A DNA stretch of 64,000 bases from Haliclystus octoradiatus (taxonomy: Eukaryota; Cnidaria; Staurozoa; Stauromedusae; Haliclystidae), in NCBI GenBank assembly GCA_916610825.1, contig OU744449.1:13348452-13412451 (forward strand), read 5' to 3'. Numbering within the stretch: the stretch's first letter is position 1; every line of letters begins with the position of its first letter. The position numbers were made by a program, and so were the translations under genes. Below the pieces are notes generated by a model, which saw only the letters and a list, made by a program, of their open reading frames with translations, made no database searches and was not told where the DNA came from. This document shows, piece by piece, positions 21,665 to 63,449 of this stretch.

Positions 21665-35117
<13,453 letters not shown>

Positions 35118-38373: not shown

Positions 38374-41300
38374 TCAAGGGCTCCATATTTCTCCGCAAGT
38401 GTCTGTTTTAGTTCGATACGCTTTATCCCAAAGCCATGGCTCGTCTAGTAAAAAATAAAGAAATCTAATATTAGTTAAGACAGTGGTCCAATCAAATTCG
38501 ACAACTGGCAAATCAGACAAATTCGTTGACAAATTAGACAAATTCAGAAGTCTAATCAAAAGTTACTATCCACATTGCTGCACTAAGAAATAAAGAGAGT
38601 GTAATGAGGAATGAAAATTTATTGTCAGAACTCCAGAGGCGCTACAAATAAGAGCAAATAATGATGCGTAACAATTTAAAATCGAGACTCAACACATGAG
38701 TAATCCCCGTCCTGATCCTCGTGGCATGCTTACGTGCGATTCTCCGTGCTCCAGAATCCAGCTTCCCAATCGCAAATGGGAATCAGGATTAGGCAAAGCA
38801 ACCGAGCCCACGTCGCATAACAGAGCTTTTTCCAGCAGTCGTTGCCATTCTCTCTGTTATTCTCCGCGTTTGCTATACGATCGACTGTACAAGCAACGCC
38901 TCAGTATGATGCATATGATGTAAAGACACGATACTGCTCAGGATTATAGCCATTTATATTGAGTATTGGGTGTGTCCCAAACAGGATGGATGTAGGGATT
39001 TCAATGGTCCCTCTTTTAAAGGTTCACTGTAAAAGCCGACACGTTTAATTAGCTGAAATATGCTCATACATGAGTACAGTCAGTTAGCCCTATAAAAACG
39101 CGTCCGCAGAATGAAGTGACATGCGACTATATATTGACTTACCATTTGAAGTGTATTCCGATAGTGGTAAATCGTAAGGTAAAGTCAATGCGAAAGAAGA
39201 GTCATCAACAGGCGGAGAAGTGATGCCTAGAAAGGGGGACAATATTCGATCAATATATATATACAGTACAAATGCTTATAATAATCGTCAGATAAAATTG
39301 ACAAATACTACCCCGGTCAGAAGTGGCCGTGAACCAAAATAAAACAATAAAGGCAGAAGCAAAAGCCTCAGTCGATGTTAGGCATTTGGAGCAACGTAAT
39401 TTTGAGCGTCGATTCGGCCGTGAAATATATTACCCTAAAATATGCATGAACTAATCCAATGTTCCAGCTTATCTATATACAGTATATAATAACTTTGATT
39501 CATGACTATAACATCATTACCTTGTTTGGAGTTGAGCTTGAAAGCTGTTATTGGAGGTAACTAAGCAAATAAAATCGAATAGAGCAGTGTTATAGAGTAA
39601 AGAACAAGAAAAAATGAAGACTATCAAGAAGTCCTTCAGATTTTTATAAAATCGAGAATCACATCACCGTCGTATTGAATGGTACGCAACCCAATAGGCA
39701 ATATTGACTGAAAAAGCGTATTTCTCAATTGGACTGTGAGGATCCTTGATCAGTATTGAGCTCCTATCTGTCTCTCGTTTAAAATAAGCAAATCTGTTCA
39801 TTATTTTAGTTTTTTCCCAAAGTTCCCTACATGGTTTTAATCGACATATAATTGATATGAGCGTTCGATTTTCAAACTGCTTAATCGTTTTCTGAGAATG
39901 AAAATCACGGGGCAAGGCTTCAAATCTATTTGCAAAGAAACAAAAACGAACTTTTTGCACTGGTAAGTAATAGTTGGTTTGATTTTTGAATGTTTGAATT
40001 ATTCCAGCATCTCCATCGGCTTTGGGTGTGTTTCGAACGCAGGTTTATCATACGGTGTGATTTCTTTCATTCCTTGTTGGACCGATTAGAATAATTAGTA
40101 CACTTTATCGATGCAATCCCATGAAAATTTCGTCTGCGTCACAGATTAAATCGTTTTGTAGATGCAATTAAATTTGATAAGGATCCTAACCTCCCCTTTT
40201 CGACTTCAAAAATACCAAGTACAAAAGAATACGGTTGTTTTCTTTTCTCTACCCACCCCCATCAACCAAAACATAAGAACAGCTTAAGAATTATTAAAAT
40301 CGATTTGACAACATGACATATATAGTGCAATGTTGGCATAGATGGCATACCTGATCACGAGGCAAAATAAGAACGCCAATTTCATAAGAGCGAATCATTA
40401 ACTGTGAATTATTCTTTTCGAAAGCACCCCAAGCAGCTTTAGATAAGTTTGCACTTCAATATAATAAAACACACCTGAATCAGCACAAACTGTAACACAC
40501 AAGACCTCATTATTTATCCAAAGACATGTCACACTGTCATATTTTACCGAGGGCTTAATATTTCTATACACTAACTGACACATCAAATATCCCGCATTTC
40601 ATTTTAATGGTGAAACCATGAGAAACAGTTCGAACGGTCATTATCCATTCTGTCACCAGGTGATCAGGCGGGGAGTACGGTTGCCATCGTTGAGAGCCAT
40701 TGATAGCCAATTGGTTTGATTTGTTTATCGATGGCAAAGCAACCCTCAACAAAACTGAATATGTTCCTATCAGAAGTTTGATCAGCATAGTGTACTTACA
40801 GGGTATTATTCCAGATCAATCGAAGCTTCAAAGAAATAATCACGTTTTTATCCATAATGACCCGTAAATTTACAATCTGCGGACTCATTGCAGTCCCATA
40901 GAAAACCCAACCAGTCTTATAGGGACACAGGATACTACAGTATTAGATGGAAATACTCGATATTTTATTAACCCTTATATTTCGGTACTACTGTAGCTCT
41001 ATAGGCTCTTTCGGTTTCAACGTAGATAGAAATGAGGAGCATGGAACTACTTCTGTTGCATATTTCAAAATATTTTTGACTCTGAATAGTTCAGGATGTT
41101 ATGGTGAATAACTTAGACTACAGTATCTATAATAACGACATAATAGTCAGAGTATTCCTATGATTAGTTGAGGACTATATACTATATATACTACTATGAT
41201 ACTACTAATTGCTGTTATGGGACCAATGGAACAAGTCAACATACGAAAATGTGGATGCACATTACCACAGAGGAAAGGCCAATATACTGACAGCTAGTAG

Positions 41301-44300
41301 CACATAATAACGTCATAGTAACTGCTGCAGCAAATGATTGATGAGTAGATTTTACTTGTTGGCTTATTAAGTTTAACATATATTTATACAAGACATAGTG
41401 TGTACGTGTTTATATTATTTAAATCAAGTCTCAATCAATCATATATATTCATAAAGCTGATAGCTTTCATATATGTTTTCCTATCATTTATTTGCAAGTG
41501 CAATGGAGTGTGCATGGATGGAAAATATTGTTTTCAACAGTGTACTGAAAGTTGTAATGGAGGATATGTTATATGTTCATACCTTGTCACTAAGTACCAT
41601 GCCGCTCTTTCGCAATCACGTGACACTCGTGTGTAAGTTTTCACGTGTGGGGAAGCATGAGTACGACCACACAGATCAGCCTTCCATTGACTGCACAAAA
41701 AGAATACAGAAATACCTCTTAATAATATTAATGCCAATTAATTAAGTGGACATTATTTGATTTAAAGGGAATACAGTTCTTTTGAAAAGATAATGAGACA
41801 GACAGGCTAATAAAATGTCATTAAAACAGCGCTTGTTATTAATAGTGTTCATTCAACCTTTTGATCCTGAGTCGAGAGATATCACCATGCAGCCATGAAC
41901 TGATTTAAAATTGAAAACTATTCAGAATTTCGTTTCTTTTAGTTTAACTGCGGTATTGCAGAGATTTTTAATACAAAGGCGGTCTTGAACGATGAAAATT
42001 AATGTCTACATCTTTGAAGGTACCTTTATAAATTCCCATACTAACGCAAACGTGACTGACTGACGGGCTGTCACATGTTCTTGGTTAATAAGTCGTGTCT
42101 ATGTAGTATGTACATACAGTATGTGACGTCTTTCTCTATATACAAGTTGTGTCTTGGTGTCTTTAATATTTGTATATTACTTTGTCTGTTGTGTATTATC
42201 ACTAACTATATCCTGCATGAACACAGTCATTTAGTACATTGTAAGTTCATTGGACATGTTTTAGACACTGTACACCACAACAACGTAGGAGGATCTATTA
42301 AAACAAACAAATAAAGTGTAGTAAAACAACAACTACGCACCAGACACACACAAAATGTTGTTATTTACGACATAGACGTATGAATTGTAGCATGATCAAA
42401 ACACTTGCAATTTCATTTAACTTTTAACATTGAAATTGTAATTGATTTTTCACCCCGTCTTTCATCAAAGTGGGGAGACAGGATAGTTAGAAGTAATACC
42501 CAACAGACACAGTAATATACAGATAGGTATTAACGACACGACTTAACCAAGACGAAGGCACAACTTGTATATAGACGCGTCCGTATATTATATATATAGA
42601 CACGACTTTTTAACAATTAACCAAGAACATGTAATAGTCAGTCTGTGTAATTACAACATAACGAGGCATGCGCATACATCATACAATTGAAAAGAGGAAC
42701 TATGCTAATTTCCTTGGTATTACTAATCAGCTATTAATGACGCGTAACAAAAGGTTAATAACGTCGAATGTTAAATAGAGAATATACCGGCGTCGAGTTT
42801 GATGTAGACCACAACAACAAACATCCTTTATTTGATACATATAACACGTGGAAAATTTGTATAAAATAGTTTTAGAACAGGATGTTAATTAGGTAAATCT
42901 AGTAATGGGGGAGTTTCTAGCGTTCGATAAAAGAGCACATTTGAAAGTAAGCTTCAATCTTTTACAGATCACGGTTTAGAACGCATCAAAAAAGAAGAGA
43001 ACGATTATTTGAACAAAATGGCAAGCGAAGGTTTTGATAAAATAAGCACGAGTGTTAAAGTAGCGCGTATAGCACTTTACTTGGTGAACTTTATTTTATT
43101 TCTTGGTGGCTGTGTGTTGGTTGGTGTTGGTATATACACACTTGTAAAAGGGAATGATTATTTTGTAGTTGTAACCAATGGTAATGCAAATATAATGTCA
43201 TGGATAATGATTAGTATTGGATCATCATTCATGTTTCTATTTTCTATTGGTTGTATCGGTGCCGCGCGGGAAATACGTGGATTATTAGCCGTCTATGTAT
43301 CAACTGTTATCTTCGTATTAATCATTGAAATCGTTGCGATTAGTTTATTATTTCACTACAAAGAAGATATCCACACAAAAATACGAGATCAATTTGAAAT
43401 AAACATTGAAAGCAAATATGGCGAAAAGTATGAAGATGACATAACATCTGGTATAAATAAAATACAAATTGAATTCTCATGTTGTGGTGCTCATAACTAC
43501 ACTGATTGGGATACTTCAGAATGGGTCAAGGGTAACCCAGGCCTACAAGCACCATCTTCGTGTTGTAAGAACCATCAAGCTGAGCCTAAATGTACATTAG
43601 CAACTATGCCAGATAATGTATTAAATATGAAAGGCTGTAGCAGCGAGTTAGAATCATGGGTTAATCGGCATTTAAATGTTATAGCAGGAGTAGGAGCCGC
43701 TGTGATGGTATTGAAACTGATTGGTATTATCCTAGCTATCATTGTTATACGTAATTAATAAGTAAAATGATACTTTGTATATACTCTATTTATTTCCTCA
43801 TGTGCAACGTAGCACATTTTTACATTTTTTACATTTTTACAAGTACAGTAATCAAAACATGAAATGATACTGTAATTAATAAAGACTTTTATCAACTTTA
43901 TTCATTGTGTTTCATTGTTGTTTTAATGAGTACAGTACTAGCTGCATTCAGTAGCGGAAATTAAAAAATTTAATTAGGGAATGTGTGTCATCTTGATTGC
44001 CGCATACGCATTACGCAAATACGTACATTAGGCGTTCTCTTCTCTCTCTCTCTCTCATAATTATGGCAATCGAGTAAAAGCAGCTGATTTCAAAGCGGTT
44101 TTTGAAAGGTAGCTGAAAATCTGACCAGTATTGACAGGTGGTCATTGCTCAGAGGGAGCTATACAATGTAATGGAAGTATTGCTAAATGGTGGCGATACT
44201 ACAATACTACAATATATCAATTGATGGTAATATAGATCGGTTCAGCATCTTACTGGAAGTATTGAGTGAGGTATTTCTGTTTGTTGGCTGTCTTCGTACT

Positions 44301-47300
44301 GTATGGCAATGACCCACCAGCTGAAATCAAATCAAATATTGCCATTGATTTCTTAATACTGTATGTATGTGAATTGATATGTACTGATGTATGGTTTGAA
44401 TAGCCAACTGTACCTCTATAGCCTTCTAAACTTGTTCGTACATTTTCCACTGTTGGGAATATCTGTTCAGCAGAAAATGGAAAAAAGTTATTATTTGCTG
44501 GTAAAAAAATTCAATGGTCACTTCAATGGTCACTTTACTTTAGCTTTTCACCTGCCAAATAAATAACTGTAGCAATTCTTAAGAATATTTCATATAATAT
44601 TACACTATAATTGTATCATGTGTGATGTCACATCGCATGAATAAATGTTTATGAAAAGGTGGGCAACTTAACATTCATCAATTTCAGATCAGATGTGATC
44701 ACGGACTGTTCGTGAACTGTCTATAAGGACCGATGATGAACTTTTTTATCCTTGTATGGCCAATCAATAGCGCTACAGCAAAGAATAGAATAAAACCTTT
44801 GGTTCGTTTCCTTGATTAAATGATGACGTGTATCTATTCTATATAATCACGTGTATGAATCATTAACAAATTGCATATCGCATCGCATGATATCACTGTG
44901 GTTACGGGCATACATTAGGATATCCCCTGCGAAATATTTCATGAAAAGTTCTTGGACATTATGAATAATCAAGTTTTATAAACTGACCAGTTTTAGATTT
45001 GCAGGTGAATTTTCCTGCATCAGAGTCTGTCCTTTGCATGAAGATAAACTCTTTCGCCATTCCCCGCAGAGCCATTGCTCAGCAGTTGCACCTAATGATC
45101 CAATGCTTGAAAATTGACCAATGATATTCCATGATGCATCAACATCAGAAAATGAAGGGCCATGATTGAGTAATAGCTACAAAAACAAAAAACAGATAAA
45201 TCGTTGGTATTCTCTATTGGATAGTAAAAGATACTAATAAGGATATTCAAAACCACCAATGGAAACAGTCCAGGAAAGTCAATTGACCACATTTTCATGA
45301 ATTGCTCACAAATGTTCATCATAAAGTTTATGAACCGTATATGGACCGTTCGTGAACAGTTCATGACATCAGGGGTGATTAGCTCAGTTGGCAGAGCAAC
45401 CGAACTTCAGATCGTATCATATCTGATCGACTGTGGTTCAAATCCCCCTCAGGTCAACTCAGCCTTGGCTTTATCTGAAACATCAAATGAGTACCATCTA
45501 AGGATGGCGGACGGAATGGTTCAGAAGGAATTGCATTGTGAGTAGTTGCGGCGCATCGTTGCGCATTGACAATCAAGGCCTATCTGCCATGAAATCTGTT
45601 GAAATTGATCTGCAGTGTCGCGGCTGAGATCTAAGGAGCGTTTAACATCATTGCTCTTAGCGAAAAGAGCCACTCCTCTAGAAATAGAGGAGTGGTACGG
45701 GTGCCTTCGGTAGGGCGACACCGTCCACATTACTTTTTTACATGACATCAGGGGACATGAAGTCTAGTAGATAATGACTGGGCAAAACTGGAAATATTTG
45801 AACAAATTAATGTGTTTTTAATATTTAATGACAAGTTTTATTAGGTAAATAAATGGTTGACATTTCATGCAATTTCTATGAATTTGCTTCCAATTTGATG
45901 AACACTTGGCGCAAGCAATTATACATTTTATATTTAATTAAATTTATGACCCAATAGTAAAGTGTTTTTCTATGATCAACATTTATAATTATAAATACCT
46001 AACCAAAACAGCATGTCTTAAGTTAATCAATATACACAAGAAAGTCACCAGCTTGCAAGAAACATCTAATTCATTTAAAGATCAACAAAATTCTTAAATC
46101 TGCACCCTCCCAAAACACGATTTTGATAATTTTGCATGCAGTAATCTCCTGTGAGAGCATTTCATCAAAGTCCACAAAAACGTTTGTGATAATTAGGCCA
46201 ATTAACGTTGATGCACAAGATCTGTTCATAAATTTCCATTGGGTTCATCAACTGTTCATTGATTGTTTTCACAGAATGCTTAGACGCACAAGTTATAATA
46301 ACAATCAAAATGATTATTCAAATAGAACATAACATTTACCTTTCTCAGCTTTAAATGGCCCCAACGAAATTTACTAGATCCAATATGACGACCAGGAACA
46401 GATGCGACAATACGAACTCTAAAAACAGATATAAAATCATAATGATTACAATTCATTACGGGTGCTGTTGCCATGGTTCTCTCACTCTCCTAGTCTTGAA
46501 CGAATCTTCAAAAAGACTAGGATATTTCGATATTCGTGTTCAAACATATAAATCTGTCAAAAATATAATTTGAAACTATTAAAAGTATGTGATGATATCA
46601 TACAAAAATTAAGAAATCTAAATTCATTATAATTTTTCCAAAATCTACCGAAATACAGTAAGTCATCATCATCATCACCATCATCATCATCATTTATTCA
46701 GAACCTTTAAGTTATACAAACTTTTTTTCAAAGGACTGATACATAGCTAAGTTGACAGGAAAACAGACATTAAGTAAAAAAACAGGCATAAATAACAGGA
46801 AAGAGTGGTAAGTGTAAAGTATACTAAGAATGTAAGTGCTTCCCAAGGAGACGTTTGAAAGTAGGCCTGCTTTGGACTTCCTTCATTGCAGACGGTAGAT
46901 CGTTCCACTTATGCGCACCAGCGTCTTGAAATGAATGACGATGGCTCGACTTGATGTAAATGTCATTGTGGGCGTGAGATCTTGTTCTGGTGGAATACGG
47001 CAGTTGGAAAAAGTTGGAAAGCAAAGGAGGAGCTAGTTTGAATTTAATTTTATGAGTGAACATTAGTTGATGCGATGTTATTCTGTCTCTAACAGAAAGC
47101 CAACCTAGTTGACTTTGCATATCAGAGACACGAGTGCGATAGTTACAACGGAGCACTGTCCTCATTCCTCTGTTTTGCAATCTCTGGAGGCGATCTAGAT
47201 GTTCGGTTTTACAGTTCCCCCATACGACAGCGCAGTAGTCAAAGTGTGGCAAAACAATGGTGTTATAAATAGTTCTAGCTGCTTCTTGCGGTATGAAGCG

Positions 47301-50300
47301 TCTCACGTCGCTTTTCAAAATCGACGTGTTCTTGTTTATTAAGTTTTGGCCTGGAGCCTATCACCATGCAGTTATTTTTATTTATATTTAATGTTAGTTT
47401 ATTTGCACACAGCCAGGCATGTATTTCAATCAGATCTGACTGTAAAATTTCTTCAACGTCTTTCAAATCTTTACGGGCTACATACAAAAGCGTATCATCT
47501 GCATATAGATTTAATTTACAGTTATTTACAGAGTTACATAGTAAGTTAGTAAGGATTTGAACATCATAACAGTTTATCAGAAATAACAATGGTTTTGCAT
47601 GGGACGGATTTAGTGCTTGCGTCAAGTCGTGCTTGAGGTATGGATCGTGTGACAACATTTGTGGAATTACAGATGAGCCACATATAATACAACAAGATAA
47701 TATTTTTGACTTTCAGAAGCAGGTAGATCCACCTACTATGATATAGGTATAAAGCTTACACAGTACAGTCAGTAGCATTAATTAATGGCTGTTTAGATGG
47801 GGCATCTCGTATATCTTATAGACAAGGAGAATATTTGATGTAATTATTTTAATAATTATGCTAGAAGGATTATAATTGGTGACACTGACTCAAAACATAT
47901 ATAGATGTGTACCTTGCAGATGACATATCATGTCTAAGGATAACTTTTCTCCAATAATTTAATGAACCATCTCCATAAGCTGCTAGGTAATCCTACAAAA
48001 AGGATCATCTTCATATGAAAATGATGAAATCATTGTTACATCCAATGACTATCCCTGTGGAAACAGTCCATCAATGTTAAATGGCCCAACGCATATTAAC
48101 CATTTATGAACAGTTAAAGAAAACGTCCATGAAAAATGGGCCATGCAATAATGTTCATGAATTGTTCATTAACTGTTTGTGAACTCAATAAGTTTTTTTG
48201 CAGCCGTAGCCTGACTTTTTCTTAATTACAGTTCATGAATTGTTCCATAATTTGCTCAATGTTCATGAACTGTTTATTTTTGACACCTATACACTTCAGG
48301 GAGTATTGATAAGATATTAATTTATGTACTGTTAACTTGGAAATGGTAGCCTACTGTAGTAAGTAAAATCAATTGAAACATTAAAAAAAAAAATGAATTG
48401 CTGTCATGTAGTTGACTTACCAAAAGGTCTTCTTGAAACGTATTTGATCTTTTCAATTCAACCTCTTTTTCAACACGGGGAAATAGAGGACTCATCCAAA
48501 CACTAAATTAATTACAGAATAATTAATTGCACAACATCAATATATATGCCCCACTTAATTAAATACCCATATTCAGTTTCAAATGATTAAACAATTATCT
48601 ATGACTTTTTGCAGCAGAACTACTTTGAACAATATGTGCTTCTTATCCAGCTATATGTGTACCATGTGATAAGTATGCAACTGAAACATCTAAGTTTCCT
48701 ATTGGAAACACAAATTTATGGATGCCCAAAAGTTTTTAGGTTGTTCCGTCAGTAAAACATACCAATCAACCTTAAACATAATTTGTTGCACTATTAGAAC
48801 CATAAAGTGGGGCAACCTACATCCAAGCTTGAATTGACAAAAATTGAAATTAGAGTTTTCAAATGTATCTTTTTTTAGGCTAGCCTGCTTGCAGTCTCTC
48901 TGTAAATTGGAAACTTAGTAGAAAATAAGAGAGTCTGCGAGCAGGCTAATTTGAGGCATGCTTTTTAAGTTCTGGTTGTCTTATTAAACATTTTGTTTTA
49001 ATCATCATACTTCTTATTATGTCCACAAGCAGTTTACACAGAGGTAGGTTTAACATTCCTTGATGTGTGAATCGCAGCAGAAAGCCAAACATATTAGACT
49101 TATAGCAATGATATAATTTGAATTTCATGAATTTAATAATTGTCACATGTATGAATTCAGTATGTGTGCGTTATCATCAACTACTTCAACCCAATGATGA
49201 ATCAAAGCAAGAATTTACAGTGCTGAATGAGGAGTATACATTACCCTTGTGTCTTCTGATCCCAATCCAGAGCAATTAGATTAGCAGTATGAATAACAAC
49301 CACCAAACCATCATTGTAGAGTAGAAACATCATTTTACTAAATTTAGTCAAATATATTGAAGCTAAATTAGCATGTATGTATGTATGTATGTATGTATGT
49401 ATGTATGTATGTATGTATGTATGTATGTATGTATGTATGTATGTATGTATGTATGTATGTATGTATGTATGTATGTATGTATGTATGTATGTATGTATGT
49501 ATGTATGTATGTATGTATGTATGTATGTATGTATGTATGTATGTATGTATGTATGTATGTATGTATGTATGTATGTATGTATGTATGTATGTATGTATGT
49601 ATGTATGTATGTATGTATGTATGTATGTATGTATGTATGTATGTATGTATGTATGTATGTATGTATGTATGTATGTATGTATGTATGTATGTATGTATGT
49701 ATGTATGTATGTATGTATGTATGTATGTATGTATGTATGTATGTATGTATGTATGTATGTATGTATGTATGTATGTATGTATGTATGTATGTATGTATGT
49801 ATGTATGTATGTATGTATGTATGTATGTATGTATGTATGTATGTATGTATGTATGTATGTATGTATGTATGTATGTATGTATGTATGTATGTATGTATGT
49901 ATGTATGTATGTATGTATGTATGTATGTATGTATGTATGTATGTATGTATGTATGTATGTATGTATGTATGTATGTATGTATGTATGTATGTATGTATGT
50001 ATGTATGTATGTATGTATGTATGTATGTATGTATGTATGTATGTATGTATGTATGTATGTATGTATGTATGTATGTATGTATGTATGTATGTATGTATGT
50101 ATGTATGTATGTATGTATGTATGTATGTATGTATGTATGTATGTATGTATGTATGTATGTATGTATGTATGTATGTATGTATGTATGTATGTATGTATGT
50201 ATGTATGTATGTATGTATGTATGTATGTATGTATGTATGTATGTATGTATGTATGTATGTATGTATGTATGTATGTATGTATGTATGTATGTATGTATGT

Positions 50301-53300
50301 ATGTATGTATGTATGTATGTATGTATGTATGTATGTATGTATGTATGTATGTATGTATGTATGTATGTATGTATGTATGTATGTATGTATGTATGTATGT
50401 ATGTATGTATGTATGTATGTATGTATGTATGTATGTATGTATGTATGTATGTATGTATGTATGTATGTATGTATGTATGTATGTATGTATGTATGTATGT
50501 ATGTATGTATGTATGTATGTATGTATGTATGTATGTATGTATGTATGTATGTATGTATGTATGTATGTATGTATGTATGTATGTATGTATGTATGTATGT
50601 ATGTATGTATGTATGTATGTATGTATGTATGTATGTATGTATGTATGTATGTATGTATGTATGTATGTATGTATGTATGTATGTATGTATGTATGTATGT
50701 ATGTATGTATGTATTTCAACCATAGTCTTACATAAATCAAACATAATTATCAAAATTATTATATTGACATTTTCTAAAAATATGATAGATATATAATAAC
50801 AAAGTTTATGTTGGATAATACATGATGGCTTGATATTGGAGAATCCCCTTTAAGTACTAATCAATCAAAACGTGACAGTAGTTTCTATCTCACTGTGTGA
50901 TGTGCGTATGAGGCATTATATTCCAATAGAGAGGCTAATATGTACATGTGTTTGAGCAGCACCCAACAGTGCATTGCCATGTAGCATGTACGTGATACAT
51001 CATAAAAATAAAACATACCTGTGGTGAGTGCCAAATGATATTGGTAATTTTGCCTGAAATAAAGTACAGTATAGAAAACTTCAATGAAAGAACCAAACAT
51101 TACTTAGAAAATTAGAAAATTAATAATTAGAAAATAGAAAGTACAAGGAAATGCACACAACAGAATAGTGATAGAGTATATAGTAAGTAGACAATGTTAC
51201 AAACAAATTTGCACATGTCTTAAGCTATATTTCAAAGCAAACGATAAAAAATTTGATTGTTCCATGTTCCATATATAGCTGATAGCATAAAAGTATAATA
51301 TACGATGGAAATATTGTATAGCATATTCAATTTGTTAATTTATAAAAATAAAAAATAAATAATTTGTTAATTAATAGACAATTCACACACACTGAAGACA
51401 GACTGTAGTATACTTTCTAGTAGAGTACTTGTTTGTAATTTATAAAGCGTAATAAATATATTATTATTATTAAACTTGAAAAGAATTATGACTGCTAAGA
51501 ATACTCTATCATAGACACACAGCAAATTAAAGAAGGGCAAGCTGTAATAGAACAATATTATCAAAGATAACAATATAGAAATATACACATAGTTTATTAA
51601 CAAACAGATAATAATATTAATATAGAGATAGGCCTACATGATTAAGGAATGGATTCATAACACTTCAAAATCCTCAACCAGTACTATTTCAAATTGAATA
51701 ATGAAAATCTTTATGAACTGTTTGTTAAATCTGTTGATAGGGTGTTTGTGAGCTGAGTTCATGAACGTTCGTAAAGTTAGTGAACTGTTTATAGGGTGTT
51801 TGTGAACAGTTCATGAAAGTTCGTAAAGTTTGTGAATGGCTTATATGGTGTTTGTAAACAGTTCATGAAAGTTTGTAAAGTTGATGAACTGTTCATGAAC
51901 GAATTTTGCAAGTATCTTGAAATTTTGGTGCATGCTGCAATGTAACATATAATATGGGTAGCTAATTGGAATATTTTGATAAGATTGTGCATGTCATCTA
52001 TAATTGAAAAATAACTCATCAAAATGCATCAAATTTTTGTCCGGTAAACCCTGATTGTAAAAGTGCAAAAGTGCAGCAAATACAAAAGTAGGAATCCTGG
52101 AATCCTAGATTCTGGAAGGCTAGAGCAAATTCAGAAGAAAATTTGTTCATGATTTAATGGTCAAACTTCAACAAAAACATCAGAAGAAAATGTTGAAATG
52201 GCTGTAGGATTCCAGAGGGGTAACGTTTTTTCGGGCCACATACGAAAGCTTTAATTTATATAGATAGCGTGAGAAAAATAATAATTAAGCATAAAGAACA
52301 TCTGGAACTGAGCACAACAGTTTTGCGCCATTCCCATGAACATTTTTTGAACTATTTTCGGCATGCATATAATAATGATACTCAACTAAAGTTGAGGCTT
52401 AATAAATACCCTAAAATTCAAATTACAGGACAATCCAAATGTTGATCAAAGCCTACCTGATAAAGGTCAACATGACTGTATAAATTGGCTTGCTGTTCAA
52501 GCTGGGCTTTTGCATTACCAGTGTCACCATGAATAATCAACAGAGGGACATCTCTATCATATATCCAAGACAGGAATAATGGTCAATAGAAATAAATTGG
52601 TTGACCATAATGGAGTTTATCACCAAATAATAAGCAGATAGACGTATTCATTATCGACATTTTGGTTGGAATTGCTTCAAGTATTAATATAGTCATCATT
52701 TTACATGATAACCTTCACGTAAAATATTGTCACGGCATTGCCTGGTCAAAAACAGTCCATGAATATTAAATGGCCCAAATTTTATCAACTTTTCATGAAA
52801 TGTTCATGGAAATATTCCGGTCTCTTTTTAACACTCTGTAATCAATAGTAGTTACTACTGAACAATATGTTTCAAACGAATGACTGATTTTGATGTATAT
52901 CAACCTGAAAAAACAGATTGATAATTGTTTGAAGCCGATCAGATAAAAAACGACCGAGATATCAATGTTTTAATACGTCTGTTCTGCCGCACATTTGTTT
53001 TCGTAACGTCACCATCTCAATATAGTTTTTAGAGAAAATGAACTAATTTTATATACAAAATTAATTACATACAAAAACAAGTTACATCAGAATCAATTAT
53101 TTATTTGAAAATAGTGGTGTATCCGATTTATCGTTTGATTGATTACGCTTTCATAAATTGATTGAAATTGTGAATCGATAAATGGTTGAAAAAGGAAAAA
53201 GGAAAAATGGTTTCTTTAGAGGTTGTTTTTTGTGCAATAAAATAGTTTATTATTTATATTGTGTTCTGTTCTTTCTAAATATAGATCTTATTTATTGAAT

Positions 53301-56300
53301 ATAGAGTTTCTTTGCTTATTCCTTCACAATTTAATGTTCATTGAATAGGTCATAAATGTATGTTTACATCAAGAAGCATTGTCATTCAACTCCTGTTAAT
53401 TATTTGCCATGCAATTGCAGAAAACGCCATTCATGTAAACTTTCCATTGAAAGAAATTTCTGAAGAAATGAAATACAAAAGCCGTGAAGCTTTTTTTTAA
53501 ACTTTCAACCGTTGATAACGTAGAAAACTCTGGAAACAATAGGTATGTTGTTTTGGAACGATTATTTGATTCTGAATCGATTCTTGTCTGCGGCTAATCA
53601 ATGCTGAAATTTTTTAATCGACCCATCTCTATTTGAAAGAGATTTCTACGATAGAAACCCCTATTCAATAATGAATCAGTTCATGAAAAACAGGTATAAT
53701 TCAAAGACCATGAATTGTTCATGGTCGGTTTCTGAAATGCTTGCAACCCTCGTTAAAACTGTTCATGAATATCAAATGGCCAAAATTTCATGAACTTTCT
53801 TTGAACACCTTACACCTTAGATTACATAATTCATGAACAGTTCATGAGAATCAAGATATTCTTGACTTTTTTTGCAAGGGTGATTATATAATGTTCATAG
53901 AAAGATATGCTGAATTGAATTGATTAAATTGAATATTATACCTTTGTGATGTGGGATATTGTGAAACAAGCCAAGGGATATCTATCATATAACTGAACTG
54001 AAACAGAATAAAAAAGATATAGAACTGATTAATTACTCAAATGTGATGTACATAATAGTGCCAGGAAATTTCTTGCCTTTAAAGGTCAAATTTGAAAAGG
54101 ACATATGCAGACAATCATACAAAATGATTATGATTATAATTATCCAACAAAAAACACACAATAATTGGCGCAACAGTTTCGATTTAATCTAAAATCATCT
54201 TCAGGCAATGTGAAAAGAGAGAGTTAAAAAGTTACATGAATATTTATATAAAAATCTAATTAATTTGTCTATTGAATTTATCGGAACGGTATTATACTTT
54301 TTAAGAATGGCAAACAATAATTACAGGATAGATATTTTAGCACAAGAACTAATTACGAATATACGATACAAACACGGTGAAATAACAGTTACAATCAAAA
54401 ATAATTTAACAGCGGCAAAATGCTCTTTGGTATTGTTCTTCCATTTTCTGTATTTCTTCTGGTCGTTGTTTAATATATTGCCGACCTGAGTGGTCGACAT
54501 GACAGCATCGCACATGTCACACAAGATAACAACAGTTAGATTTAGCGTAACTATGAATATGGAATAGTAATAGCTTAGAACAAATTGACAAAAAGAAAAA
54601 CTAAATACGGATATACTATAAGACAGATACAATAAAATAATTATTACAACCAAAAACAAATAATCCAAAATCCATTCATCAATGGCAAAATGTTCTATCA
54701 GATTGATTACTAGATTGATGATTTATTTGGTGTCAATTTGGCCTAAAAGATTTTGAATTAACTTTCATAGTTACGTTATATCTAACTGTTGTTATCTTGT
54801 GTGACATGCGCGATGCTGTCATGTCGGCCAATCAGGTCGGCAATTTTTTCAACAACGACCAGAGGAAATACAGAAAGTTGGTAATCAATCTGATAGAACA
54901 TTTTGCCATTGATGAATGGATTTTGGATTATTTGTTTTTGGTTGTAATAATTATTTCATTGTATCTGTCTTATAGTATATCCGTACTTAGTTTTTCTTTA
55001 TTGTCAATTTGTTCTAAACTATTACTATTCCATATTCATAGTTACGCTAAATCTAACTGTTGTTATCTTGTGTGACATGCGCGATGCTGTCATGTCGACC
55101 ACTCAGGTCGGCAATATATTAAACAACGACCAGAAGAAATACAGAAAGTGGAAGAACAATACCAAAGAGCATTTTGCCGCTGTTAAACTATTTTTGATTG
55201 TAACTGTTATTTCACCGTGTTTGTATCGTATATTCGTAATTAGTTCTTGTGCCAAAATATCTCTCCTGTAATTATTGTTTGCCATTGTTAAAATGTATAA
55301 TACCGTTCCGATAAATTCAATAGACAAACTAATTAGATTTTTATATAAATATTCATGAAACTTTTTAACTCTCTCTTTTCACATTGCCTGAAGATGATTT
55401 TAGATTAAATCGAAACTGTTGCGCCAATTATTGTGTGTTTTTTATCGCATATACCATCATGAAATTAATGTCAAGTAAACCTTTACGAAGACAATTATCC
55501 AACAACCAACAATAATAGCCTACCTGTGCAGATGCCTTCAGTGTACTATGGTGCTTTGACAAAATGTCTAACAATAGAAATTCAAAATAATAATATTGTA
55601 CAAAATAATAATGAGTTCAATTTTAATTGCAATCATGAACTTTATTAGCAGTTTATTATTAAAACATTTTAAAATGAAGGATAGCGACAAGAAAAACTCT
55701 GAGATTACAACGTTTTGATAAATTATCATTTCAAGCGAAAGAGAATAAATTTAAAGTTGACATGGTATAGACAACTTTAGACAGTAAAGTTAATAGATGA
55801 TTTAGGGTTACGTGAGCTGAGGCTGGCCTTATTGTCTAAGCAACGTGTAGTATATTTATTCAAGTGTAACTTGTGTACTGCGAGCTATGTTGGCTATACT
55901 CGTAAACATCTGTGTTGCCTGACATAATGGGTCGGATGTCGGTGCACATCTAAGATGTAATGGACGTAGCGTTCTAAACGAAAAAAGCCTGTTTACTGTT
56001 GTCAGAAAGTGTGCCTCAAAATTTGACTTCCTAATACACAACATGCTAGCCACCAGGGAGTTGAACCACACATAAAACATGCAAACTGACTCAGTGAAGT
56101 CTAAATTATTCACATAATGTATTTCCAAATAATTACAAAAGCCATTGTTTTTGTTGTATCCATACGTGAAATCCATTGTTATTATTATAGAATAAATTAT
56201 GTAAATTAGAGTAATTTTATACTATACCGTATATACAATGTCAACTTTAAAATTATTCTCTTTTGCTTGAAAATGATATATGACATATCGAAACGTTGCA

Positions 56301-57979
56301 ATTCTCAGAGTTTTCTCTTGCGGCTATCCTTCACTTTAAAACAATCATGAACTATCCATCAACATGAAACTAGGAAACTTATAGAAAGCCCCGGAAACCA
56401 AGTTAACTTGAAAGAAGCTCAAAGTGTTTTAAAGATGAAATTTTGTATCTAATTAGGTGAAAATAATTAATAACTACAAAAGAATTATAGGGGTTTACTA
56501 GATGATATGATGTTCTGGTTTTGAGAACTACGAGTAGGGATATTAGGCCTACATATATAGTTGGCATATCTAACAGTTCTCACCTTTGATATCAATTGCC
56601 AATTTACTTGTATTAAATTTAGATTGAATTCCTCTGGCCTTTGTGAAACCAATGAAAGAGGAAGTTGTTGATTTATCTAACCTTTCCTCCTTGGTATTGC
56701 CAGAACCTACTGATACAGGTGCTGAGCTGTTCCCACTAGGTATATCATCGTCACTATTATCTGATGTCAAATCAATTTTTTGTCGCTTTTCCGCCGGAGA
56801 GAAATCTTTGTTGTCATTATTCCCATTACCTACTATAGTAAAGAAATTATTTCTACACTTACAGTCAAACAAACTATAGAAGGGTCATTCCATGGCAAAT
56901 CACACAGTTTAACCCTCACCCTCTCTAATCTTGTTAAGTTTGGTATATAAGCAAAGCTTGATGAGAATCATGAATTTCAAAAGTTTCCAAATGGATTTGA
57001 AACCAAAATTTTGAAAGGACTTCAATCTTACTGAAATTGATATTCATTGACTACAATTGAGTTTGGTAATTTACAAATCATAAATAATGTTGATTTCACT
57101 TATATTGCTTAATTATTCCTCAATCCTTTATTGCTTTGTTTCTTTGTGTTAAATCATATTGCAGTGCTTACTGAAGTTGCTGCGTTGTTGTATGCCTTGT
57201 AGAAATCCGTATACCAGTAATCGCAATCCAGCAGCTGTATTATAGTTTTGTATAGCAGTAATTAATTTTGTACTACTCAGGTATTTCGCTCTTAAAATTG
57301 TTTAATATTTCAGAAGATTCAATACTAATCAGAGTAGTATTGTAACTCAAATTCCAAATTATTATTCAGGCCATACATTTGAAATATTTACCTGTCAAAA
57401 ACCACAATTTTTTAATTAGGCCTACTGGTCTCTTCTCCTGTGAAAAACAGTTCAGGAGTTCATGAAATCCTGAACTGTTCTTCGTAGGGGTTGTCACTCG
57501 TTTACTTTATTCCAAAACTCAATTTCATTCATTTTGAAATTCGATTAGAAAATTATTTTAAATAGCCTACTTTACATTTGAAAAATAGTTCGAAGTCTGT
57601 TAGAATACTGTTCAAAATCCATTTGAAAAACAGGGCACCCGCTTGAGTGCAAGTAAAAATTGCTAACGATTTTCATTTCATTTATCCGAGTTGCATTTAA
57701 CCAGGTTACACTGCAATATAAAAGTATTCGCTAGTCAATAGTAATAAAAATGCATAAGAATTCTGGTTTATGAAGAACATGCACAGCACATAAATAATTA
57801 TATCAATACAATTATGACAAGTATCTACCATGATCTGAAGTAACGAGTTATGTTGTTCTACTGTATCCTAACGTATAGACCCTACCTGTTGATTTTTCAG
57901 GATGACTGAACTCTGCTAAATGAGATGCATTTCTCCTATAACAGAGAATTCCGTATTTGCACAGTGGTTTTTCGGCCAT
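38374..57979 (-). CDS. TDP1: Tyrosyl-DNA phosphodiesterase 1 (TDP1) with N-terminal PBZ zinc finger, 18 coding exons
   Basis: Minus-strand exons: 57979-57886, 56832-56584, 55567-55524, 53997-53942, 52553-52457, 51053-51019, 49337-49245, 48502-48421, 47992-47913, 46418-46340, 45176-44988, 44462-44414, 44320-44254, 41690-41583, 40453-40351, 39560-39521, 39226-39143, 38444-38374. Phases all agree: 539 residues (human 608). It hydrolyses stalled topoisomerase I-DNA 3'-phosphotyrosyl links. The two phospholipase-D-type motifs are H191/K193/N211 (THHSKMM..HTANLI) and H420/K422/N443 ([16 protein letters not shown]). Residues 7-26 form a C-x5-C-x6-H-x5-H PBZ finger (CKYGILC..HLAEFSH), which binds poly(ADP-ribose) in other proteins. 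A disordered region follows with [15 protein letters not shown] (nuclear signal / possible SUMO-interacting motif). An in-frame upstream TAG supports this ATG. Exon 11 uses a weak GTCAGT donor. Confidence 0.95.
42054..42643. mobile_element. Inverted-repeat element upstream of the tetraspanin gene
   Basis: CACATGTTCTTGGTTAA..AAGTCGTGTCTAT and CTATATACAAGTTGTG on the left are mirrored at the right (e.g. TTAACCAAGAACATG near 42618). Arms are about 42054-42203 and 42496-42643 with moderate divergence. No coding signal. Confidence 0.65.
42860..42866 (+). promoter_or_regulatory. TATA box of the tetraspanin gene
   Basis: TATAAAA lies 158 bp upstream of the ATG at 43018, a plausible core promoter for this intronless gene. 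Two hundred bases further up is the inverted-repeat element. Confidence 0.4.
43018..43758 (+). CDS. Tetraspanin, intronless, nested in a TDP1 intron
   Basis: The ORF from ATG at 43018 (context AAAATGGC) gives 246 residues; typical tetraspanins have 220-300. Four membrane helices lie at about 17-41, 58-82, 91-113 and 222-244. The large extracellular loop carries the signature CCG at 155-157, a second CC at 182-183, and C192 and C207, so six cysteines (three disulphides). One N-glycosylation site is N160-Y-T. The N-terminal tail is short and the C-terminal tail is only a few residues. Tetraspanins organise plasma-membrane microdomains. The gene lies on the opposite strand between TDP1 exons 13 and 14. 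Subfamily not assigned (CD63/CD9-like range). Confidence 0.93.
   Translation: MASEGFDKISTSVKVARIALYLVNFILFLGGCVLVGVGIYTLVKGNDYFVVVTNGNANIMSWIMISIGSSFMFLFSIGCIGAAREIRGLLAVYVSTVIFVLIIEIVAISLLFHYKEDIHTKIRDQFEINIESKYGEKYEDDITSGINKIQIEFSCCGAHNYTDWDTSEWVKGNPGLQAPSSCCKNHQAEPKCTLATMPDNVLNMKGCSSELESWVNRHLNVIAGVGAAVMVLKLIGIILAIIVIRN
43878..43883 (+). terminator. Polyadenylation signal of the tetraspanin gene
   Basis: AATAAA 120 bp after the stop codon, followed within 30 bp by GT-rich sequence (TTGTGTTTCATTGTTGTTTT), the usual downstream element. Confidence 0.65.
44036..44056 (+). repeat. (CT)n microsatellite
   Basis: Short CT dinucleotide run between the tetraspanin gene and TDP1 exon 13. Confidence 0.7.
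45288..45361. repeat. GTTCATGAAC-type repeat in a TDP1 intron
   Basis: Divergent TTCATGAA, TTTATGAACCG, CGTGAACAGTTCATG strings. The SINE at 45376 inserted at its edge. Confidence 0.6.
45376..45740 (+). mobile_element. Full-length tRNA-derived SINE with 14-bp target duplication and structured tail
   Basis: CATGACATCAGGGG occurs at 45362-45375 and 45741-45754, a perfect target-site duplication. The head has an A box (TTAGCTCAGTTGGCAGAGC) and a B box (GTGGTTCAAATCCCC). The 3' part forms consecutive hairpins: GCTCTT/AAGAGC (45653-45670), an 11-bp stem closed by a GAAA tetraloop (45670-45695), and a third imperfect stem (ACGGGTG/CACCGT, 45697-45724). It ends ACTTTTTTA. The element lies antisense to TDP1, in the intron between exons 10 and 11. 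Confidence 0.85.
46660..47700 (-). pseudogene. LINE copy with RT (YADD) and C-terminal region, internally deleted
   Basis: On the minus strand, about 47658-47275 encodes an RT palm segment with the catalytic NLYADDT motif. 47318-46824 encodes the C-terminal region ([13 protein letters not shown].. [10 protein letters not shown].. [20 protein letters not shown]). The two are in different frames, and about 50 codons present in the 61-kb copy are missing at the junction. The 3' end is AATAAATGATGATG followed by a trinucleotide run. It lies in TDP1 intron 9 (between exons 9 and 10). Confidence 0.85.
48060..48275. repeat. GTTCATGAAC-type repeat in a TDP1 intron
   Basis: Contains AATGTTAAATGGCCCAA, ATGTTCATGAATTGTTCAT and ATGTTCATGAACTGTTTA strings; same family as at 10.8 kb. 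Confidence 0.7.
49373..50714 (+). repeat. Uninterrupted (ATGT)n microsatellite, 1342 bp, in TDP1 intron 6
   Basis: About 335 perfect ATGT units with no interruption seen. It ends 36 bp from the TDP1 exon 7 acceptor (exon starts at 49337, minus strand). Every plus-strand frame encodes Met-Tyr-Val-Cys and every minus-strand frame Ile-His-Thr-Tyr with no stop; these long open frames are not genes. Strict purine/pyrimidine alternation gives it Z-DNA potential. Confidence 0.97.
51705..51905. repeat. Tandem repeat, about 52-bp unit, of the GTTCATGAAC family
   Basis: Three units of GGTGTTTGTGAACAGTTCAT followed by GAAAGTTCGTAAAGTTnGTGA run from about 51738 to 51900, each diverged by a few bases. 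Shows that the dispersed repeat can also amplify in tandem. Confidence 0.8.
52748..53845. repeat. Two further GTTCATGAAC-type repeats (52748-52812 and 53675-53845)
   Basis: The first contains CAGTCCATGAATATTAAATG and GGCCCAAATTTTATC. The second contains ATGAATTGTTCATGG, AATATCAAATGGCCAAAATT and TCATGAACAGTTCATGA. Between them no gene is seen; both are in TDP1 intron 4. Confidence 0.65.
54149..55446. mobile_element. 1.3 kb palindromic (foldback) retroelement-like unit in TDP1 intron 3
   Basis: Arms 54149-54710 and 54881-55446 are near-identical inverse copies around a 170-bp centre. Termini read AAAACACACAATAATTGGCG. Short peptides such as MCDM(R)DAVMS..QVGN recur three times because a sub-unit is repeated in both arms and the centre; there is no real gene. 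AATTATCCAACAA occurs just before the left end (about 54138-54150) and again about 45 bp beyond the right end (about 55492-55504), a possible 13-bp target duplication, which would suit a retroelement such as a Penelope-like one better than a DNA transposon. Confidence 0.78.
55673..56335. mobile_element. TIR element with TTAA duplication in TDP1 intron 2
   Basis: TTAA flanks both ends (55669-55672, 56336-56339). TIRs of about 105 bp begin A(A/G)TGAAGGATAGC and continue to TTTAAAGTTGACAT. An open minus-strand stretch of 106 codons inside has no recognised domain. The TIR includes ATTGCAACGTTTCGATA, also related to the ends of the palindromes at 20.7 and 54.1 kb. Confidence 0.8.
57437..57482. repeat. 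Short GTTCATGAA-type fragment in TDP1 intron 1
   Basis: CAGTTCAGGAGTTCATGAAA and a weak inverse. Marginal member of the dispersed family. Confidence 0.35.
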
Positions 57980-60168: not shown

Positions 60169-62688
60169 CGGTGTCTGTAACTTGCATGCGTGTGTGCGAG
60201 CTGCGTGCTTGTTCAGGAAACACGTCATATTTATCATCTTTTTGTATTACGATTTTAAGCGTCTCGATGTTATGAAAAAGGTTTTGGCTCTGCTAAATTT
60301 TGCAGTCGCTGTCATGTCGTAATTGACATGAGACTTACTCCAGATCCGGGACTCTAGACTTGAATAATTTATTAACAATCTTATTTATTAAACATTCATT
60401 ATTCGACCGCTACATTAATAATATCAATGACAGCGATAACGTTTAGCGATATCATCATCATCGTCATCATCATCATTTATTCAGAAACTTTTAAGTTATA
60501 CATAACTTTTTTTCAAAGGACTGATACATGTTGCATACATAGCTAATTGAACAGGAAAACAGACATTAAGCAATAAAGGGTTTTAAATAACGGGAACAAG
60601 TCGTAAGTATAAAGTATCTTAAGAACGTAAGTGCTTCTCAAGGAGAAGTTTGAAAGTAGGCCTGTTTTGGACTTCCTTCATTGCAGACGCTAGATCGTTC
60701 CACATATCCGCACCAGCATCTTGAAATGAATGGCGATGGCTTGACTTGATGTAAATGTCATTGTGGGCGTGAGATCTTGTTCTGGTGGAATACGGCAGTT
60801 GGAAAAAGTTGGAAAGCAAAGGAGGAGCTAGTTTGAATTTAATTTTATGAGTGAACATTAGTTGACGTGATGTTATTCTGTCTCTAACAGAAAGCCAACC
60901 TAGTTGACTTTGCATATCAGAGACACAAGTGCGATAGTTACAACGGAGCACTGTCCTCATTCCTCTGTTTTGCAATCTCTTGAGGCGATCTAGATGTTCG
61001 GTTTTATGGTTCCCCCATACGACAGTGCAGTAGTCAAAGTGTGGCGAAACAATGGTGTTATAAATAGTTTTAGCTGCTTCTTGTGGTGTGAATCGTCTCA
61101 CATATTTCAAAACGCCCAAGCTTCTATTTATTTTCTTATTTATTGATACAACATGCTTGTCGACAGATAGGGTATTGTTTATTCGAATGCCTACGTATTT
61201 CAAAAGATCTACTCTTTCGACACATTTGTCATCCAGCTTTATTATCAAATCGGTCGGTTCTTGTTTATTTAGCTTTGGCCTGAAGCCTATTACCGTGCAG
61301 TTAGTTTTATTAATATTCAATGTTTTAGTAATATTCAATTTTGAATAAATAGCCTGACTTTATATATATTAAAACACCTTGTTTGCCGACAAATTGACCA
61401 CTGTTATCATACCTGATGGGAGAACTGTAGCCATTCAGAGATATGAGGTTGTCTGGTATCTCAGGGGATAGCCAGGTCTCCGTCAAACAGAGGACGTATA
61501 TTACCGCTATATATACAGTAACATGTTATACGAATTTTAAATTCAAAATTCAAAATTGAAAACTTATTTTGATTAAATTTCAATGCAATATATCTATCAA
61601 ATTGATGATACAGAAATTCTTAGAATTGATTATTGACTTTATTGTTAATAAATAGAGGCCGATAAACATTTCAGAACTTTCTAACCCCTACAAATAATTG
61701 CCTTTTCATTTGGCAGGAATTCCTTGGATTTCCAGCCAAATCATGGTCAACAATCCATGGAAAATCCTTAGCTATGGCTTTACTTAAATTAATCTCTTAA
61801 TAAATAAATTAATCAAGCCAAGTCTGGAACTCGGTCTGGAATGAAGTCCACGTTAATTAAGACATGACAGCGACTGTCAAATTTACCCAAGCCAGAACTT
61901 TTTTCATAACATCGAGACGTTAAAAATCCTGAGCGAGTCAAAAAGTAATAAATTATGACATATTTCTTGAAAAAGCATGCAGCCAGACACGCACAGTGTC
62001 TGTAACTTGCGTGCGTGCTGCGTGCGTTTACAGGAAATACCTCATAATTTATCATCTTTTTGTATTACGATTTTTTGCGTCTTGATGCTACGAAAAAAGT
62101 TAGGCTTGGCTAAATTTTGCAGTAGCTGTCATATCGTAATTGTCCGGGACTTTACTCCAGATTTGATTAATTTATTTATATTCTGATTTATTAAACATTC
62201 ATTATTCGACCGCTAAATAATGATATTAATGACAGCTATAAAGTTTTATGATATTACCGTTTTATATACAGTATTAAGCATATATACTAATTTCAAATTA
62301 AAAATTGAAAACTTGTTTTTAGTAATTTCAAGGCAATGTATCTATCACATTGATGATATTGATACAGACTTCGATAAACATTTCGGAAATTTCGAACCCC
62401 TACAAATAATTGCGTTTTTGCGTGATGGATATCCTGTCAAATCAAGTTAAACAATTCATGGAAAATTCTTAGCTATATGACTTCACTTTTTATCTCTTAA
62501 TAAATCAAGTCTGGAACTCGGTCTGGGATAAAGCCCCCGTCAATTACGACATGACAGCAATCGCCAAATTTAGCCAGGCCAGAACCTTTTTCATAACATA
62601 GAGACGCTAAAATTCATCAAAAAGGTGATAAATTATGGCGTATTTCCTGTAAATGCACGCAGCACACCCACGCAAGTTACAGACACCG
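60169..62688. mobile_element. Compound inverted-repeat element flanked by a 9-bp target duplication
   Basis: TTAAATTCT is at 60160-60168 and 62689-62697. The outer ends read CGGTGTCTGTAACTTGC and its inverse. Inside, two units stand in tandem: unit A (60169 to about 61995), which contains a LINE, and unit B (about 61996-62688). Each has inverted ends of about 200 bp sharing CAGGAAAYA, GTCATGTCGTAATTGAC and GAGTTCCAGACTTG-type strings. Long TIRs plus a 9-bp duplication suit Mutator-like elements. No transposase. Confidence 0.78.
60452..61498 (-). pseudogene. LINE copy nested in unit A: endonuclease fragment joined to RT C-terminal half
   Basis: Minus strand 61338-60619 is open for 239 codons and covers the end of RT and the C-terminal region (LLKYVGIRINNTLS.. 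HFDYCTVVWGN.. [18 protein letters not shown]). Upstream, at about 61497-61383, ETWLSPEIPDNLISLNGY matches the APE-type endonuclease of LINEs, so the EN-RT middle is deleted. The 3' end is AATAAATGATGATG plus trinucleotide repeats near 60452-60482. Same family as the copies at 22 and 47 kb. Confidence 0.85.
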
Positions 62689-62699: not shown

Positions 62700-63449
62700 G
62701 AGGGTGGTATTTTTTTGTTTGCAAGTTGACGAAATTGTGGCATTGTTGAGTTGTAGCATGGAGAAAAAACGGTACTCCGAGAAATAGTTTTGTGTAGTGT
62801 GCACGAAAAATTTGAGCGAAATTACATAACAAACTTCACATCAAATTACATAACAAACACTTATTGTTCATGCACGGTGTGCTAAACTGGGCCCAGTCTG
62901 CATTCGGGAAATTTTCTCCGCCGGATATTTTCCGCCAAAAGGCCTATTTTATAACCCTGATTTTCCCGCCAAAATTATATGACGGCTATAAAAAAAATGC
63001 ATAGTTTTTATCAAAATATGATACAAAAATCCACCGCCAAGGCACTGAGAGGGAAATTTCACGCCAATCTAGCGTTGGCACTGAAGACTCCGGCGGGAAG
63101 CCTGTGGAACAATGCAGACTGGAACTGACTATTCGCACGAATTGTGCATCGATCGTGCGAATAGACCCAGCCATAGTGTTGGTCTATTCCATCGATCGTG
63201 GCTTGTGCCAATAGACCCTGTCCGGCCATTACATATCTATGTTCATTCTTTCCTACCTGTGTAGCAAACGATATTTATGACTCACATGCAATAATAATAC
63301 ACGTTTTATGCAGCATTTTCTGGTTACGATTTGCGTGAAAAATTACTGCATACATCAGCATAATCTTCAATTATCAACTTGCCTCGCTGCTCACAAGCAA
63401 AGCGAGGCGAATTTTAAAGAGTTTGAAATTCGAAAATTTGAAAAATAAC
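62700..63449 (+). promoter_or_regulatory. B9D2 5' flank with E2F-like sites and hairpins
   Basis: TTTTCCCGCCAAAA at 62961-62974 is a strong E2F-type site; TTTTCCGCCAAAA lies about 30 bp upstream. A 12-bp-arm hairpin (CTATTCGCACGA, 63129-63140; inverse 63153-63164) has a diverged direct copy just after it. Another hairpin, GCCTCGCT/AGCGAGGC (63381-63408), sits 41 bp before the ATG and probably in the 5' UTR. Function inferred from position only. Confidence 0.4.

What the first reader, a model, noticed from the sequence alone, without database searches (positions are those of the whole stretch)
56584..57979. TDP1 carries an N-terminal PBZ (poly(ADP-ribose)-binding) zinc finger
Exon 1 encodes C-x5-C-x6-H-x5-H with KYG between the cysteines and a final FxH, the PBZ pattern of APLF and CHFR. 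The splice phase leads directly into the disordered region and then the TDP1 catalytic core. Vertebrate TDP1 has no PBZ as far as I know and is thought to reach damage partly through PARP1 binding. A built-in PAR reader would be a more direct link between PAR signalling and topoisomerase I repair.
Basis: partly seen in the sequence, partly recalled or inferred. Interest (0 to 1): 0.75.

Follow-up and report, generated by a model that had tools for sequence, protein, structure and literature searches.

The report
TDP1 with built-in PAR-reading finger
In a stalked jellyfish, the gene for the DNA-repair enzyme TDP1 begins with an exon for a small zinc finger of a kind that reads the poly(ADP-ribose) damage signal, which suggests that the enzyme may find broken DNA by itself; this still has to be tested.

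Summary
Exon 1 (57979-57886, minus strand) encodes a strong PBZ finger (Pfam zf-CCHH E 3e-14) that resembles both fingers of human APLF. Its ligand pattern occurs once in the window; 0.07 are expected. I extended the gene to 18 exons with AG/GT introns: a 539-residue TDP1, 51% identical to the human core, both catalytic motifs intact. Exons 2 and 3 carry no methionine, so a first exon must lie upstream; exon 1 supplies an ATG and a phase-matched donor.

The genome fits the stalked jellyfish Haliclystus octoradiatus. Its five TDP1 matches and its only PBZ match over the cut-off lie in this gene; a CHFR-like PBZ is split by an intron. PARP, zf-PARP and XRCC1_N matches are present.

Not shown: the spliced transcript, PAR binding, recruitment, spread among animals. 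Codon usage and a structure model of exon 1 were inconclusive. No passage seen reports a PBZ in TDP1. Verdict: a new combination of two known parts.

The parts
57886..57979 (-). TDP1 exon 1: start codon and whole PBZ finger (residues 1-31; C7 to H26 at 57961-57902)
   Evidence: Pfam zf-CCHH E 3e-14; APLF PBZ1/PBZ2 in PDB, E 3e-11; both Kozak positions and donor CAG|gtaggg
56833..57885 (-). intron 1 (phase 1, 1053 bases); acceptor tatag|TAG, tandem acceptor 3 bases on
56584..56832 (-). TDP1 exon 2: polar, probably disordered linker with PAEKRQK and an acidic run, then the start of the catalytic core (residues 32-115)
   Evidence: core start aligned with human TDP1 PDB 1qzq; no Met in frame; disorder inferred from composition, not computed
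55524..55567 (-). TDP1 exon 3
53942..53997 (-). TDP1 exon 4
52457..52553 (-). TDP1 exon 5
51019..51053 (-). TDP1 exon 6, ends in the first catalytic motif (THH|S)
49245..49337 (-). TDP1 exon 7, K193 and N211 of the first HxK...N motif
48421..48502 (-). TDP1 exon 8
47913..47992 (-). TDP1 exon 9
46340..46418 (-). TDP1 exon 10
44988..45176 (-). TDP1 exon 11
44414..44462 (-). TDP1 exon 12
44254..44320 (-). TDP1 exon 13
41583..41690 (-). TDP1 exon 14, H420 and K422 of the second HxK...N motif
40351..40453 (-). TDP1 exon 15, N443 of the second motif
39521..39560 (-). TDP1 exon 16 (40 bases; picked from 13 frame-restoring candidates because it resembles the human segment)
39143..39226 (-). TDP1 exon 17
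38374..38444 (-). TDP1 exon 18 with stop codon

Best explanation
The gene encodes a TDP1 repair enzyme with a PBZ zinc finger at its N-terminus, joined to the catalytic core by a flexible linker. Shown from sequence: the finger, the phase-matched exon join, the intact enzyme, a single TDP1 locus among the genome's matches, and PARP catalytic, zf-PARP and XRCC1_N domains elsewhere in the genome. Inferred: the finger binds poly(ADP-ribose) made by PARP at topoisomerase I lesions and other blocked 3' ends, and so raises the local concentration of TDP1 there, in addition to any help from XRCC1 or direct contact with PARP1.
For: Pfam PBZ E 3e-14. APLF PBZ1 and PBZ2 both align. Y9, Y14 and R15 match the PAR contacts of APLF (passages of PMC6264785). 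The 539-residue product matches Tyr-DNA_phospho at E 8.7e-130 and zf-CCHH at E 3.2e-12, and human TDP1 1qzq at E 1.2e-143. All 17 introns of the model have GT...AG borders and consistent phases. Exons 2-3 have no Met, and the next Met lies inside the core (M133, exon 4). Of 14 candidate phase-1 first exons upstream in the window, 11 of at least 15 codons were printed; exon 1 alone of these has both Kozak positions. Upstream, the next gene recognised is B9-C2 on the plus strand. All 5 TDP1 matches and the one PBZ match over the cut-off in the genome lie here. PARP catalytic domain: 17 matches, 16 over the cut-off. zf-PARP on C2 about 26 kb before a PARP match on the same strand fits a PARP1 gene.
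Against: No transcript or protein evidence. Codon usage of exon 1 is not clearly coding (9.1% of intron frames score as high). Among the candidate first exons one has a better donor (8 of 9 against 7 of 9) and one an equal donor. The single-sequence AlphaFold model of exon 1 has mean pLDDT 70, and its fold search found no PBZ structure: 8 hits, best E 7.5; a zinc-held 31-mer modelled without zinc or an alignment is a weak test. A lone PBZ may bind PAR only in the high nanomolar to micromolar range (passages of PMC9881148). XRCC1_N domains are present, so the usual route may also work. No other animal could be compared.
Confidence: 0.85

Rival explanations
1. Exon 1 is one of two or more alternative first exons, so that only some TDP1 isoforms carry the finger.
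For: 13 other candidate phase-1 first exons exist upstream in the window by a mechanical scan; the acceptor of exon 2 is a tandem TAGTAG.
Against: Exon 1 is the nearest candidate with 20 or more codons and the only printed one with both Kozak positions. The alternatives were only looked at by eye, except that one lies in an ORF that gave no Pfam family (60622-61359).
Confidence: 0.2
2. Exon 1 belongs to another gene or is a stray pseudo-exon, and TDP1 starts elsewhere.
For: Codon usage of exon 1 is weak; no RNA data here; only selected ORFs of the neighbourhood were scanned.
Against: The finger is intact over its full length with all ligands and PAR contacts, both Kozak positions and a donor in the right phase 1053 bases from exon 2. 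No other minus-strand gene was recognised between it and the plus-strand B9 gene.
Confidence: 0.05
3. The finger is present in the protein but has another job, such as binding DNA, RNA or another protein.
For: PAR binding was not tested; human TDP1 uses this end for many protein contacts, PARP1 among them (passages of PMC6895789).
Against: The PAR contact residues Y9, Y14 and R15 are all kept, which would be unexpected for a finger freed from PAR binding.
Confidence: 0.1

Closest known systems
Human APLF tandem PBZ fingers (PDB 2kqb, 2kuo)
   Same: C-x5-C-x6-H-x5-H, CxYGxxCYR.N..H and FSHP of the first finger, and the PAR contact residues
   Different: Two fingers (residues 376-404 and 418-440, passages) in a scaffold protein; here one finger at the extreme N-terminus of an end-processing enzyme
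Human TDP1 (PDB 1qzq, 6dhu)
   Same: Whole catalytic core, 51% identity, both HxK...N motifs
   Different: Not among the three mammalian PBZ proteins (passages of PMC4245714); a review calls its N-terminal domain structurally unresolved and the place where PARP1 binds (passages of PMC6895789)
Dictyostelium Ku70 and other repair proteins with an added PBZ
   Same: A PBZ fused to a repair protein whose vertebrate relative lacks it; Ku70's PBZ is needed for enrichment in damaged chromatin (passages of PMC5087659)
   Different: Other enzymes and another lineage; TDP1 is not among the PBZ proteins named in those passages
Bdelloid rotifer Ligase K, and PARG with PBZ fingers
   Same: Invertebrate repair or PAR enzymes carrying PBZ fingers (passages of PMC6264785; of PMC4245714)
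   Different: TDP1 is only listed as a gene in PMC6264785, with no PBZ mentioned for it in the passages seen

Membership tests
PBZ zinc finger (zf-CCHH, PF10283) | CX5CX6HX5H ligand spacing | tested here: met
   C7, C13, H20, H26; motif as in Table 2 of PMC6953017 (passages)
PBZ zinc finger (zf-CCHH, PF10283) | Score over the curated Pfam cut-off | tested here: met
   53.1 bits against 22.7, E 3e-14, model positions 1-26 of 26
PBZ zinc finger (zf-CCHH, PF10283) | Tyr, Tyr, Arg that contact adenine and phosphate | tested here: met
   Y9, Y14, R15 at the places of APLF Y381, Y386, R387 (the residue-by-residue numbering is my reading)
PBZ zinc finger (zf-CCHH, PF10283) | PBZ fold | tested here: inconclusive
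   single-sequence model pLDDT 70, no PDB match below E 7.5
PBZ zinc finger (zf-CCHH, PF10283) | Binds poly(ADP-ribose) | not testable with these tools
   needs a binding assay
TDP1 (Tyr-DNA_phospho, PF06087) | Full-length match to the family | tested here: met
   434 bits, profile positions 4-445 of 445
TDP1 (Tyr-DNA_phospho, PF06087) | Two HxK...N catalytic motifs | tested here: met
   H191, K193, N211 and H420, K422, N443 identical with human
TDP1 (Tyr-DNA_phospho, PF06087) | Cleaves 3'-phosphotyrosyl bonds | not testable with these tools
   needs an enzyme assay
PBZ-TDP1 fusion gene | Exon 1 spliced to exon 2 in a transcript | not testable with these tools
   RNA-seq exists (ERR9434978, PMC9975415) but cannot be read here
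PBZ-TDP1 fusion gene | Found in TDP1 of other animals | not testable with these tools
   no animal collection is on hand; scans of viral and prokaryote contigs found no relatives, as expected

The most novel reading that the evidence does not exclude
In this lineage TDP1 is itself a poly(ADP-ribose) reader and reaches topoisomerase I lesions without XRCC1 or a protein contact with PARP1. The fusion may be an old animal state, and the PARP1-binding N-terminal domain of vertebrate TDP1 may be what took over when the finger was lost.
Probability: 0.3. Interest if true: 0.75.

Novelty: new variant of a known kind. Interest (0 to 1): 0.57.

Why it matters
How TDP1 is brought to topoisomerase I lesions is described in human cells as a mix of PARP1 contact, XRCC1 and PARylation (passages of PMC6895789). 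A TDP1 with its own PAR-reading finger offers a natural one-protein version of that link. It can be tested by single changes in the finger, or by grafting the finger onto human TDP1 in cell lines. It also adds TDP1 to the repair proteins that gained or kept a PBZ outside vertebrates, as Dictyostelium Ku70 did (passages of PMC5087659).

Tried and rejected
Chance motif: rejected. Exon 1 as part of a neighbouring gene: not supported; the next gene recognised upstream is B9-C2 on the other strand (10 selected ORFs of the window scanned), and the ligand pattern occurs nowhere else in the window. TDP1 as a pseudogene: rejected, all 18 exons are open and both catalytic motifs are intact. PBZ as a substitute for a missing XRCC1: not supported, XRCC1_N matches lie at two places, C6 and C11. 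'The only PBZ of the genome': rejected as too strong. The second-best hit (C6:10088029-10088103, 19.4 bits, below the cut-off) is a CHFR-like exon whose finger is cut by an intron, with a later stretch reading RYNHICEQTKFNN-stop; the likeness to CHFR is recalled, not searched, and the exon join was not modelled. The other 14 hits are below the cut-off; I read the translations of nine of them on the strand of the hit (L003-L007, L012, L014-L016) and saw no full PBZ; L008-L011 and L013 were not read.

Led nowhere: codon usage, single-sequence structure and fold search, scans of viral and prokaryote contigs for relatives (no pattern match; pattern matches, none a relative), the paper by Das and others 2014 (not held), a search for cnidarian repair surveys with TDP1 (36 papers, 10 listed, none opened for it). 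HPF1 and SNM1A families (one try each) and PARG did not complete for this genome.
Full report
What is there. The minus strand of the window carries a complete TDP1 gene. Exon 1 runs from 57979 to 57886 and encodes [31 protein letters not shown]; exon 2 runs from 56832 to 56584. I traced 16 more exons down to 38374. The 18 exons total 1620 bases and give 539 residues and a stop; all 17 introns of the model have GT...AG borders and consistent phases.

The finger. Pfam's PBZ model matches exon 1 over its whole length at E 3e-14, and the spliced protein at E 3.2e-12. In the PDB two distinct sequences match exon 1 at E <= 10, both APLF, at E about 3e-11, and both APLF fingers align. The ligand spacing C-x5-C-x6-H-x5-H is the published one (Table 2 of PMC6953017, passages). 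The two tyrosines and the arginine reported to contact adenine and phosphate in APLF (PMC6264785, passages) are Y9, Y14 and R15 here. The pattern occurs once in the window against 0.07 expected.

The enzyme. The product matches the TDP1 family model over positions 4-445 of 445 at E 8.7e-130 and human TDP1 at E 1.2e-143. Identity is 51% in the two-sequence alignment, and both HxK...N motifs are kept. All 5 genome matches to the family at E <= 0.01 lie in this gene, so I take it as the only TDP1 locus; a very divergent copy, or one with many short exons, could be missed.

Does exon 1 belong to TDP1? Exons 2 and 3 contain no methionine, and the first methionine after exon 1 lies inside the catalytic core, so the gene needs an upstream first exon. 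A mechanical scan found 14 phase-1 candidates upstream in the window; 11 with at least 15 codons were printed. Exon 1 is the only one of these with both Kozak positions, though one other has a better donor (8 of 9 against 7 of 9) and one an equal one. The next gene recognised upstream is a B9-domain gene on the plus strand at 63339-63974; a minus-strand ORF between them (60622-61359) gave no Pfam family and looks like a retroelement by eye. Against this, codon usage of exon 1 is not clearly coding: 9.1% of 2324 intron frames score as high. No RNA could be read.

Which animal. The genome holding the window has 261,861,806 bases in 33 contigs. Its contig C1 is 39,977,743 bases and C5, which holds the window, 28,991,210. 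These are exactly the longest and N50 lengths given for Haliclystus octoradiatus jrHalOcto1.1, also 33 scaffolds (PMC9975415, passages). The paper's figure gives a total of 261,898,343, which is 36.5 kb more than held here; I have no explanation for the difference. Contig C33, 18,316 bases, holds mitochondrial genes recognised by eye and two tRNA genes in all, and fits that paper's 18.3 kb mitochondrial genome. H. octoradiatus is a stalked jellyfish, class Staurozoa of the Cnidaria.

PAR system of this animal. Seventeen PARP catalytic matches at E <= 0.01 were found, 16 of them marked over the cut-off. Four zf-PARP matches on C2 (one over the cut-off) lie about 26 to 35 kb before a PARP catalytic match on the same strand, which fits a PARP1 gene. 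XRCC1_N matches lie at two places (6 matches, 4 over the cut-off). The PBZ search gave 16 hits at E <= 10; only the TDP1 exon is over the cut-off. The next hit is a CHFR-like exon whose finger is cut by an intron, so a six-frame search can miss other split fingers and 'only PBZ' would be too strong.

How it most likely works. PARP makes poly(ADP-ribose) at trapped topoisomerase I and at other breaks; the finger binds it and holds TDP1 near blocked 3' ends; the linker lets the core work. The binding and recruitment steps are inferred. A lone finger is likely a modest binder: isolated APLF PBZ1 has a Kd of 520 nM and PBZ2 8.3 uM, while the pair binds over 1000 times better (PMC9881148, passages). 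The finger may therefore act together with XRCC1 or PARP1 contact. In human TDP1 the same end of the protein binds PARP1 (PMC6895789, passages).

Known or new. Mammals have a PBZ in only three proteins (PMC4245714, passages). In Dictyostelium seven proteins carry it, and Ku70's is needed for chromatin enrichment (PMC5087659, passages). I looked at passages of the seven papers that hold both 'TDP1' and 'PBZ' (listing; passages; only the TDP1 and only the PBZ passages), and searched 'tyrosyl-DNA phosphodiesterase' with 'PAR-binding zinc finger' (4 papers) and with 'PBZ' (5 papers). None of the passages seen reports a PBZ in TDP1; of the four papers, two (PMC10452840, PMC8122967) were not opened. 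A TDP1 paper that compares invertebrate orthologues (PMC10547559, passages) does not hold the word 'zinc' in its main text; its supplements were not seen. Subscription papers and domain databases could not be searched, and such architectures may already be visible in InterPro. I therefore call it a new variant of a known kind.

What failed. A single-sequence model of exon 1 reached pLDDT 70 and matched no PBZ in the PDB, which says little for a zinc-held 31-mer. Scans of viral and prokaryote contigs found no relatives. No comparison with other animals was possible beyond human TDP1 and APLF in the PDB.

Noticed in passing
window 49373-50714: A perfect (ATGT)335 microsatellite of 1342 bases inside TDP1 intron 6, with 35 bases between it and exon 7.
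   Followed up: no
window 54214-55378: Large inverted repeat in TDP1 intron 3: nearly the same translations appear on opposite strands of its two halves.
   Followed up: no
window 42931-43755, + strand: A tetraspanin ORF (Pfam E 9.6e-44) nested antisense in TDP1 intron 13.
   Followed up: partly
window 63339-63974, + strand: B9-domain gene (Pfam B9-C2 E 4.3e-60), looks like B9D2 from memory; divergent neighbour of TDP1.
   Followed up: partly
window 33118-34045, + strand; 11115-14382, - strand; 19656-20543, + strand: AAA ATPase exons (proteasome-like by eye), a tRNA nucleotidyltransferase-like gene and a bZIP ORF.
   Followed up: no
L017, G000:C6:10088250-10085224, - strand: CHFR-like gene end (name recalled) whose PBZ finger is split by an intron; six-frame PBZ searches miss such fingers.
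   Followed up: partly
G000:C6:486419-487236 and C11:8516185-8517956: XRCC1_N matches at two places in the genome, perhaps two XRCC1 genes.
   Followed up: no
G000 as a whole: Total length held (261,861,806) is 36.5 kb less than the total in the genome paper (261,898,343), though contig number and two contig lengths agree exactly.
   Followed up: no
window 56829-56835: Tandem acceptor TAGTAG at TDP1 exon 2; both uses are in frame.
   Followed up: no
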